Part shown: positions 8,062 to 8,613 of the stretch, piece after piece
Position numbering within the stretch: the first letter of the stretch is position 1
Layout of the letters: each line of letters starts with the position of its first letter
NCBI GenBank assembly: GCA_946560065.1
Contig: CAMNUE010000002.1
Coordinates: forward strand, 1-64,000
Reading direction: 5' to 3'
Length of the DNA: 64,000 nt
DNA from: an uncultured bacterium
GTDB lineage: Bacteria > Bacillota_I > Bacilli_A > RF39 > UBA660
Notes under the pieces: generated by a model
The model's input: the letters and a program-made list of their open reading frames with translations, nothing else
Told to the model about the DNA's origin: nothing
Database searches by the model: none
Program-made: the position numbers and the translations under genes

Positions 8062-8613
8062 GATAGAATTATCTTCTATCATATACTATTTTACTTAAAA
8101 GTAGTTGAAAAGTCAGTAGTGAATTTAGTTGTGTTTTTAGTTGTATTAAATTTTCACTATTTCCTTATTTCATAAGGGATAGAAAAGAAAATAAACTAAT
8201 TAAAAACCAATATAAATTTTTCGATAGAATTTTTATCTATCGTACCCAGTTTATCACTAGACATAAGTAAAGTCTAGGTAAAAAATGGGTAAATTTTGAG
8301 TAATTTTTGGGAAGAATTAAAGAAGTGAAAATACTCTTGTATTGATTTTTATCCAATACTTTATCATAGTATCATTTACTTCTTGCAATGTCTAGGCAAA
8401 AAAGATGCAAATTTCTTGCAAAATTGTTGCAAAAAGTATGCAAAAAAGTTGCAATTCTATAAGTATCGATAAATTTTCAATACAATAACATAGTATCATT
8501 AGTATTAGTCTAATTACAATACAAAAAGTAGTATAAATTTAATACAATTTCTAGTATAAAATTAGTATAAAAATAGTACATTTTCAGTATAAATTAAATC
8601 TAATTTTAATACA
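8062..8613. repeat. Four-module array: inverted repeat + train of 11/12-bp phased 5-nt words
   Basis: IRs at 8062-8080, 8222-8242, 8339-8359, 8463-8483; trains AGTWG (12 bp), RGTAA (11 bp), KGCAA (11 bp, seven copies), RTAYA (11 bp). Confidence 0.85.

What the first reader, a model, noticed from the sequence alone, without database searches (positions are those of the whole stretch)
8062..8613. Four-module array of inverted repeat + helically phased 5-nt word trains between an orphan gene and a serine recombinase
Seen directly: module 1 IR GATAGAA-N5-TTCTATC (8062-8080), then AGTWG at 8103, 8115, 8127, 8139 (12-bp period). Module 2 IR CGATAGA-N7-TCTATCG (8222-8242), then RGTAA-type words at 8266, 8277, 8288, 8299, 8310 (11 bp; the last degenerate). 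Module 3 IR GTATTG-N9-CAATAC (8339-8359), then KGCAA at 8384, 8395, 8406, 8417, 8428, 8439, 8450 (seven copies, exactly 11 bp). Module 4 IR GTATCGA/TCAATAC (8463-8483), then RTMYA-like words at 8508, 8519, 8531, 8542, 8554, 8565, 8576, 8587 and 8609 (11-12 bp). The gap from IR end to first word is 23-25 nt in all four modules. The word changes between modules (AGTTG, GGTAA, TGCAA, GTATA) but coherently within each, with near-identical framework around it (GTCTAGGTAAAAAA versus GTCTAGGCAAAAAA). This is not a simple tandem repeat: it looks like a modular address system in which one helical face presents a repeated word. Inference: binding platform for a multimeric DNA-binding protein, perhaps controlling the recombinase or acting as a partition/replication-like iteron array. 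I do not recognise it as a described feature.
Basis: partly seen in the sequence, partly recalled or inferred. Interest (0 to 1): 0.85.

Follow-up and report, generated by a model that had tools for sequence, protein, structure and literature searches.

The report
Stacked switchable promoters for an integrase
The odd array is real: it is most likely four switchable promoters placed end to end in front of a mobile element's DNA-inserting enzyme, each with its own row of regulator docking words exactly one helix turn apart; what binds the words is unknown.

Summary
All word and repeat coordinates check out, and the 11-bp (M1: 12-bp) phasing far exceeds dinucleotide shuffles. The interpretation needs turning round. 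The array is read on the minus strand and is the control region of a large serine recombinase (LSR) gene of a tRNA-inserted mobilizable element. The same modules (1 to 4 per array) occur in about 25 related loci in gut Bacilli/Mollicutes genomes. In every locus where the context can be read, they lie next to a ~90-97 aa orphan gene, and nearly always between it and an LSR start. Each module carries a sigma-A-type promoter aimed at the LSR: -35 TAGACA/CTGACA, 17 bp, extended -10 TGnTAnnnT. Words sit at -29, -40, -51, -62, -73, -84 and -95, the same register as the direct repeats of SARP activators. The inverted repeat starts at +1. All modules feed one conserved terminator just before the LSR ribosome site. 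Best reading: tandem, differently addressed, activator-type promoters with a shared attenuator. oriT, centromere and iteron readings are disfavoured. The binding protein is not identified; the orphan fits poorly, because words and orphan sequence vary independently. In this window the LSR gene itself is broken by a second LSR element at 7489.

The parts
8606..8899 (-). orphan gene, 97 aa, alpha/beta fold without known relatives; upstream neighbour of the array
   Evidence: 353 homologues; no family; AF2 pLDDT 90; no PDB/BFVD match at E<=0.001
8508..8613 (-). M4 word train (RTMYA words, 11-12 bp); nearest word at -29
   Evidence: register from coordinates
8490..8518 (-). M4 promoter: weak -35 8513-8518 (TGTAAT), extended -10 8490-8495 (TACTAT); predicted start 8483
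   Evidence: and sequence
8463..8483 (-). M4 inverted repeat at +1..+21 of predicted transcript
8384..8454 (-). M3 word train, seven TGCAA-type words at -29,-40,-51,-62,-73,-84,-95
8366..8394 (-). M3 promoter: -35 TAGACA 8389-8394, 17 bp, TG-extended -10 TACTAT 8366-8371; predicted start 8359
8339..8359 (-). M3 inverted repeat at predicted +1..+21
8266..8314 (-). M2 word train, GTAA words at -29,-40,-51,-62; last degenerate
8248..8276 (-). M2 promoter: -35 TAGACT 8271-8276, 17 bp, TG-extended -10 TAAACT 8248-8253; predicted start about 8241
8222..8242 (-). M2 inverted repeat at predicted +1
8103..8143 (-). M1 word train, AGTWG words at -26,-38,-50,-62 (12 bp)
8088..8116 (-). M1 promoter: -35 CTGACT 8111-8116, 17 bp, -10 TAAAAT 8088-8093; predicted start 8081
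8061..8081 (-). M1 inverted repeat at predicted +1..+21
7984..8019 (-). intrinsic terminator (10-bp stem + T-run) between array and LSR ribosome site; conserved in relatives
7489..7955 (-). 5' part of the LSR gene the array faces (resolvase domain only); broken at 7489
   Evidence: 91% identical to intact L050 LSR up to 7489
5784..7553 (+). second LSR gene, of the element inserted into the first LSR
8993..9007 (-). element-end motif CACCATTGAGGTTAA, which in relatives directly follows a tRNA 3' end

Best explanation
The array is a stack of four regulated promoters for the LSR gene of an integrative mobilizable element. In each module an activator that binds a 5-nt word assembles head-to-tail on 4-9 words one helix turn apart, on the face opposite the -35 hexamer, in the SARP/PhoB-like register -29/-40/-51..., and helps RNA polymerase fire from an extended -10 promoter toward the LSR. 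The transcript starts with the inverted repeat, so it carries a 5'-terminal hairpin (or the repeat is an operator at +1). It then meets a conserved terminator just before the LSR ribosome site, so LSR expression stays low unless drive is strong or termination is relieved. Modules differ in word and inverted repeat, so the stack can answer several regulators. Shown here: word phasing, conservation, promoter motifs and their register, hairpin at predicted +1, terminator, position next to the orphan and the LSR. Inferred: that the promoters work, that the binder activates, that the terminator attenuates. Unknown: the binder.
For: Same modules in about 25 related loci; all 17 loci fetched from a genome scan with the module model lie next to an orphan-family gene, and nearly all face an LSR start, although those LSRs are only ~37-45% identical between groups. 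Promoter (-35 >=4/6, 16-18 bp, TG-extended -10 >=4/6) in 20/28 modules toward the LSR, 0/28 on the other strand, shuffles mean 1, maximum 5. Words at -29 (14 modules), -40 (12), -51 (13), -62 (12) and so on; AGTTG class at -26/-38/-50/-62. Inverted repeat begins 4-6 nt after the -10 in 22/28 modules while its length varies 19-31 nt. Terminator conserved before the LSR in both LSR groups. AfsR direct repeats lie at -40 to -30 and -29 to -19, 11 bp each, overlapping -35 (PMC10936776). Trans_reg_C regulators, a class known to use such repeats, are present in all 12 genomes checked, three in the window's own.
Against: No expression or binding data. The 28 modules are related, so counts are not independent. 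A plain promoter scan of the region is not enriched over shuffles. M4 and the GTAA class have weak -35 boxes, and the GTAA class (L056, L071, L117, L119) largely lacks words at -29/-40. A terminator between promoter and gene needs an extra step. The words were not found outside this context in 338 genomes, so a host or helper regulator with other targets is not visible. The LSR downstream is broken in this window.
Confidence: 0.7

Rival explanations
1. Stack of transfer origins (oriT or oriT mimics): inverted repeat bound by relaxase, nick about 10 nt away, word train bound by a ribbon-helix-helix accessory protein, several specificities in tandem, as in staphylococcal pWBG749-type mimics or the 5-bp repeats recalled for pAD1/pAM373.
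For: Anatomy matches (IR, fixed gap, conserved TANCA core, phased words that vary between types); the element carries a MobV relaxase in relatives; L069 has a hybrid module (IR of M3, words of M4) joined at the core; oriT-mimic stacking is known (PMC8136818).
Against: MobV has its own conserved hairpin-rich region directly upstream of its gene in four elements; modules found only beside orphan-family genes and LSR starts, never beside relaxase genes, in 338 genomes; no similar module near the three other relaxases of the own genome; promoter motifs and terminator unexplained.
Confidence: 0.1
2. Same promoters, but the bound protein represses: words and IR are operators of a repressor filament (phage-immunity-like), and stacked modules let an element escape a resident's repressor.
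For: IR at +1 and words straddling -35 could occlude polymerase; word and IR types vary as immunity groups do.
Against: Word centres lie about half a turn from the -35 centre, i.e. on the opposite face, which allows co-binding; -35 boxes are often poor, typical of activated promoters; no repressor gene seen in the element.
Confidence: 0.15
3. Centromere, iteron or replication-type array for partition or rolling-circle replication.
For: 11-12 bp direct repeats resemble parC, TubR iterons and the pMV158 bind locus (from memory).
Against: No ParM, TubZ, Rep or RHH gene among array-linked genes examined; IR loop not conserved as a nick site; promoter and terminator architecture.
Confidence: 0.04
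4. Phased A-tracts: intrinsic DNA curvature only, word identity incidental.
For: Linkers are A/T tracts in phase (sequence).
Against: Linkers vary while the G-first word is conserved at 11-bp steps; word type changes coherently within a module.
Confidence: 0.04

Closest known systems
SARP-activated promoters (AfsR afs box) and OmpR/PhoB-family direct-repeat promoters such as SaeR GTTAA-N6-GTTAA
   Same: Short word plus 11-bp period; repeats overlap -35 and the spacer at -29 and -40 (PMC10936776); 5-nt word with N6 spacing (PMC5083920)
   Different: 4-9 repeats instead of 2-3; inverted repeat at +1; several promoters with different words in tandem; regulator unknown
BldC / lambda Xis head-to-tail filaments on variable numbers of direct repeats (PMC6428758)
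   Same: Variable number of direct repeats, cooperative filament expected
   Different: BldC repeats AATT-N3-4-(C/G) are degenerate; no BldC-like gene in the element; HTH_17 not detected at E<=0.001 in the own genome
Helper-responsive IME promoters (AcaCD on SGI1, SetCD on MGIVflInd1)
   Same: Regulated excision/integration genes of a mobilizable element (PMC4605294, PMC5704250)
   Different: There the regulator is encoded by the helper element and also controls the helper; these words were not found elsewhere
pWBG749-type oriT mimics in staphylococcal plasmids (PMC8136818)
   Same: Cis-sites of several specificities carried by mobilizable elements
   Different: SmpO binds GNNNNC sites 65-67 bp apart; here promoters, not nick sites
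MraZ boxes of Mollicutes (AAAGTGKN3)3 (PMC5282649)
   Same: Short word repeated about one turn apart at a promoter
   Different: Three boxes at a chromosomal cell-division operon; word and gene differ

Membership tests
SARP/OmpR-PhoB direct-repeat activated promoter | direct repeats one turn apart (11 bp) | tested here: met
SARP/OmpR-PhoB direct-repeat activated promoter | repeats overlap -35/spacer at fixed register to -10 | tested here: met
   -29/-40/-51 in most modules; the GTAA class departs
SARP/OmpR-PhoB direct-repeat activated promoter | cognate winged-helix activator binds the repeats | not testable with these tools
   Trans_reg_C proteins exist in all 12 genomes checked; binding unknown
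oriT / oriT mimic | adjacent to or recognised by a relaxase | tested here: not met
   Modules beside orphan and LSR, not relaxase; MobV has its own conserved upstream region
oriT / oriT mimic | MOBC (Replic_Relax) relaxase in host genome, as for pAD1-like repeats | tested here: inconclusive
   0 of 16 genomes, but control genomes did not ring either
oriT / oriT mimic | mapped nick site | not testable with these tools
   needs bench work
par centromere / iteron origin | linked ParR/ParM, TubR/TubZ or Rep genes | tested here: not met
   array-linked genes examined: orphan, LSR, small ORFs, MobV, cargo
integrative mobilizable element | integrase plus relaxase, insertion at a specific chromosomal site | tested here: met
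   LSR plus MobV in L050; tRNA 3' ends next to the orphan side in several loci

The most novel reading that the evidence does not exclude
The stack is a multi-input receiver. Each module's word set is read by a different regulator, carried by the host or by different helper conjugative elements, and mobilizable elements collect modules by recombination at the promoter core so that integrase expression, and hence excision, can be triggered by whichever partner is present.
Probability: 0.2. Interest if true: 0.8.

Novelty: new variant of a known kind. Interest (0 to 1): 0.55.

Why it matters
How mobilizable elements of uncultured gut Bacilli decide when to excise is essentially unknown. A compact, repeated promoter module with readable word specificity gives a direct handle: the regulator can be fished out with the words. 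If the modules answer different partners, they show how a genetic parasite widens its choice of partners by stacking addressable promoters, analogous to the stacking of transfer origins in staphylococcal plasmids.

Tried and rejected
1) oriT-mimic idea: scanned the loci of the own genome's relaxases; the best hit (L036:15183-15204) was a terminator followed by coding sequence. PF13814 search gave nothing, with uninformative controls. 2) DNA similarity of the array in relatives and plasmids gave only A/T-rich noise; a pattern on the IR arm plus core worked, although three of its one-mismatch hits (G227, G286, G261) were not arrays. 3) Orphan homologues in viral contigs: none. 4) Orphan fold against PDB and BFVD: no match at E<=0.001. 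5) Rfam: no RNA family. 6) Looking for the same word trains elsewhere: only simple 11-bp tandem repeats. 7) MobV oriT identity for the IR: rejected because of the separate conserved region before mobV. 8) HTH_17/BldC-like binder: not detected in the own genome, not pursued. 9) Whether the +1 inverted repeat acts as RNA hairpin or DNA operator: G-U versus A-C mismatches fall on both strands, so undecided; variable length anchored at +1 favours RNA.

Full report
Observation. Word phasing is far beyond chance: chain score 63.6 against shuffles with mean 18.9 and maximum 31.6; module by module at most 1 of 500 shuffles reaches the observed score; lag-11 autocorrelation z = 5.4, lag 12 in M1.

Surroundings. 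The array lies between the 3' end of a 97-aa orphan gene (8606-8899, minus) and the start of a large serine recombinase (LSR2, about 7955 downward, minus). LSR2 is broken at 7489, where an element with another LSR (5784-7553, plus) is inserted. Window 309-1589 is a MobV relaxase. The nearest named relatives of the intact LSR2 in L050 are the Ccr recombinases, below cut-off.

Relatives. A pattern from the IR arm and core found the array in other genera with no backward-control hits. Orphan homologues led to 24 GTDB loci, titled uncultured Tenericutes, Mollicutes, Bacilli, Clostridia or Erysipelotrichales. Arrays there hold one module (L059, L061, L063, L068, L070, L074), two (L064), three (L058, L069) or about four (window, L056, L057, L065, L066). 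A covariance model of the module, run on 338 genomes of the order, hit 16; all 17 newly fetched loci have an orphan or orphan2 gene next to the module, and nearly all face an LSR start; in a few (L112, L114, L116, L117, L123) the LSR side is missing, off the contig or not detected. In a sample of 298 genomes of the class only the own genome matched. L050 shows the whole element: orphan, array, intact LSR, two small genes, MobV. Several loci show a tRNA 3' end directly before the orphan side, so this is a tRNA-inserted integrative mobilizable element.

Anatomy in transcription direction (minus strand in the window). Between words and IR nearly all modules share TANCA-N3/4-TANCA and most share TGTCTAGG. 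Read toward the LSR these are -35 TAGACA/T (CTGACA/T in the AGTTG class), 17 bp, extended -10 TGnTAnnnT. This promoter is present in 20 of 28 modules in that direction, 0 of 28 in the other, about 1 in shuffles. With the -10 hexamer set at -12 to -7, words start at -29, -40, -51, -62, -73, -84 and -95 in most modules, and at -26, -38, -50, -62 in the AGTTG class. M4 follows the register (-29, -40, -52, -63...) from its coordinates, though its -35 is poor. The inverted repeat begins 4-6 nt after the -10 in 22 of 28 modules, i.e. at about +1, while its length varies from 19 to 31 nt. Its arms covary. A fixed 5' edge with a floating 3' edge suggests a 5'-terminal RNA hairpin rather than an operator with fixed half-site spacing; this is inference. 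A terminator (ACACAARGGA...TCTCTTGTGT plus T-run) stands just before the LSR ribosome site in nearly all leaders of both LSR groups.

Mechanism. Word centres lie about half a turn from the -35 hexamer, so a bound protein would sit on the opposite face and could share the promoter with polymerase, as SARP activators do: AfsR repeats occupy -40 to -30 and -29 to -19 (PMC10936776). SaeR, an OmpR-type regulator, uses GTTAA-N6-GTTAA, the same 5+6 grammar (PMC5083920). The best explanation is therefore a stack of activator-type promoters feeding an attenuated LSR gene. Multi-repeat occupancy may resemble BldC or Xis filaments (PMC6428758).

Who binds? Not known. The orphan is the obvious neighbour, with a confident but unmatched fold. 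But GCAA words occur with orphans about 20% identical (orphan2 group), while word sets differ between loci whose orphans are up to 96% identical (L069 lacks GCAA; L059, L061, L063 have only GCAA). Word trains with divergent linkers occur nowhere else in 338 genomes, so a helper or host regulon using long trains is not visible; shorter sites would have been missed. OmpR-type regulators are few but present in all 12 genomes checked (3-7 each).

Evolution. Modules are shuffled. L069 joins the IR of M3 to the words of M4 at the promoter core. L063 looks like L064 with the stretch between two TGCAATGTCTAGG copies removed. Word number changes by 11-bp units (L066 against the window loses 33 bp in M4) (sequence comparison).

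oriT reading. It was the strongest first alternative because of the anatomy and the oriT-mimic precedent (PMC8136818), but the MobV gene has its own conserved hairpin region and the modules never accompany relaxase genes directly.

Limits. No expression or binding data; modules are homologous, so counts are not independent; contigs are mostly metagenome-assembled; the model search is biased to the module types it was built from; TSS positions are predictions. The recalled pAD1/pAM373, parC, TubR and pMV158 comparisons rest on memory.

Noticed in passing
window 7489 and L066, L071/L111, L122: LSR1-type elements are inserted inside other elements' LSR genes. In L066, L071 and L122 the junction falls at the same codons (CGNGTG|CCGTTGTAATAC, just before the catalytic serine motif), which would inactivate the resident recombinase; in the window it lies further into the gene.
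   Followed up: partly
L055, L075, L077: Degenerate elements next to tRNA genes; in L055 and L077 the orphan start or its first words are fused to what looks like the MobV 3' end by an internal deletion, in L075 the orphan is truncated.
   Followed up: no
L050:12840-13000, and upstream of mobV in L110, L115, L118: Conserved hairpin-rich stretch (CTAAGGTGNTAAACCTTAG...CCCATRTTTTGAT...TCAAAACATATAGGGRG) directly upstream of mobV: likely the MobV oriT.
   Followed up: partly
window 8606-8899 and 14729-15001: Two distantly related orphan proteins (about 20% identical in alignment) with hundreds of homologues each, a confident predicted fold without PDB match, next to LSR genes; candidate recombination directionality factors.
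   Followed up: partly
L113:720-1182, L115:7640-8063: Further stacked modules in the LSRB group, the last with a consensus TTGACA-17-TGCTAAAAT promoter and TTACC words.
   Followed up: partly
G150:C4:39315-39395, G205:C57:2768-2815, G244:C7:53634-53681: Unrelated simple 11-bp tandem repeats found by the word-train pattern.
   Followed up: no
window 11209-12336: SPFH/Band-7 protein with zinc ribbon and SHOCT domain among cargo genes between the two LSR elements.
   Followed up: no
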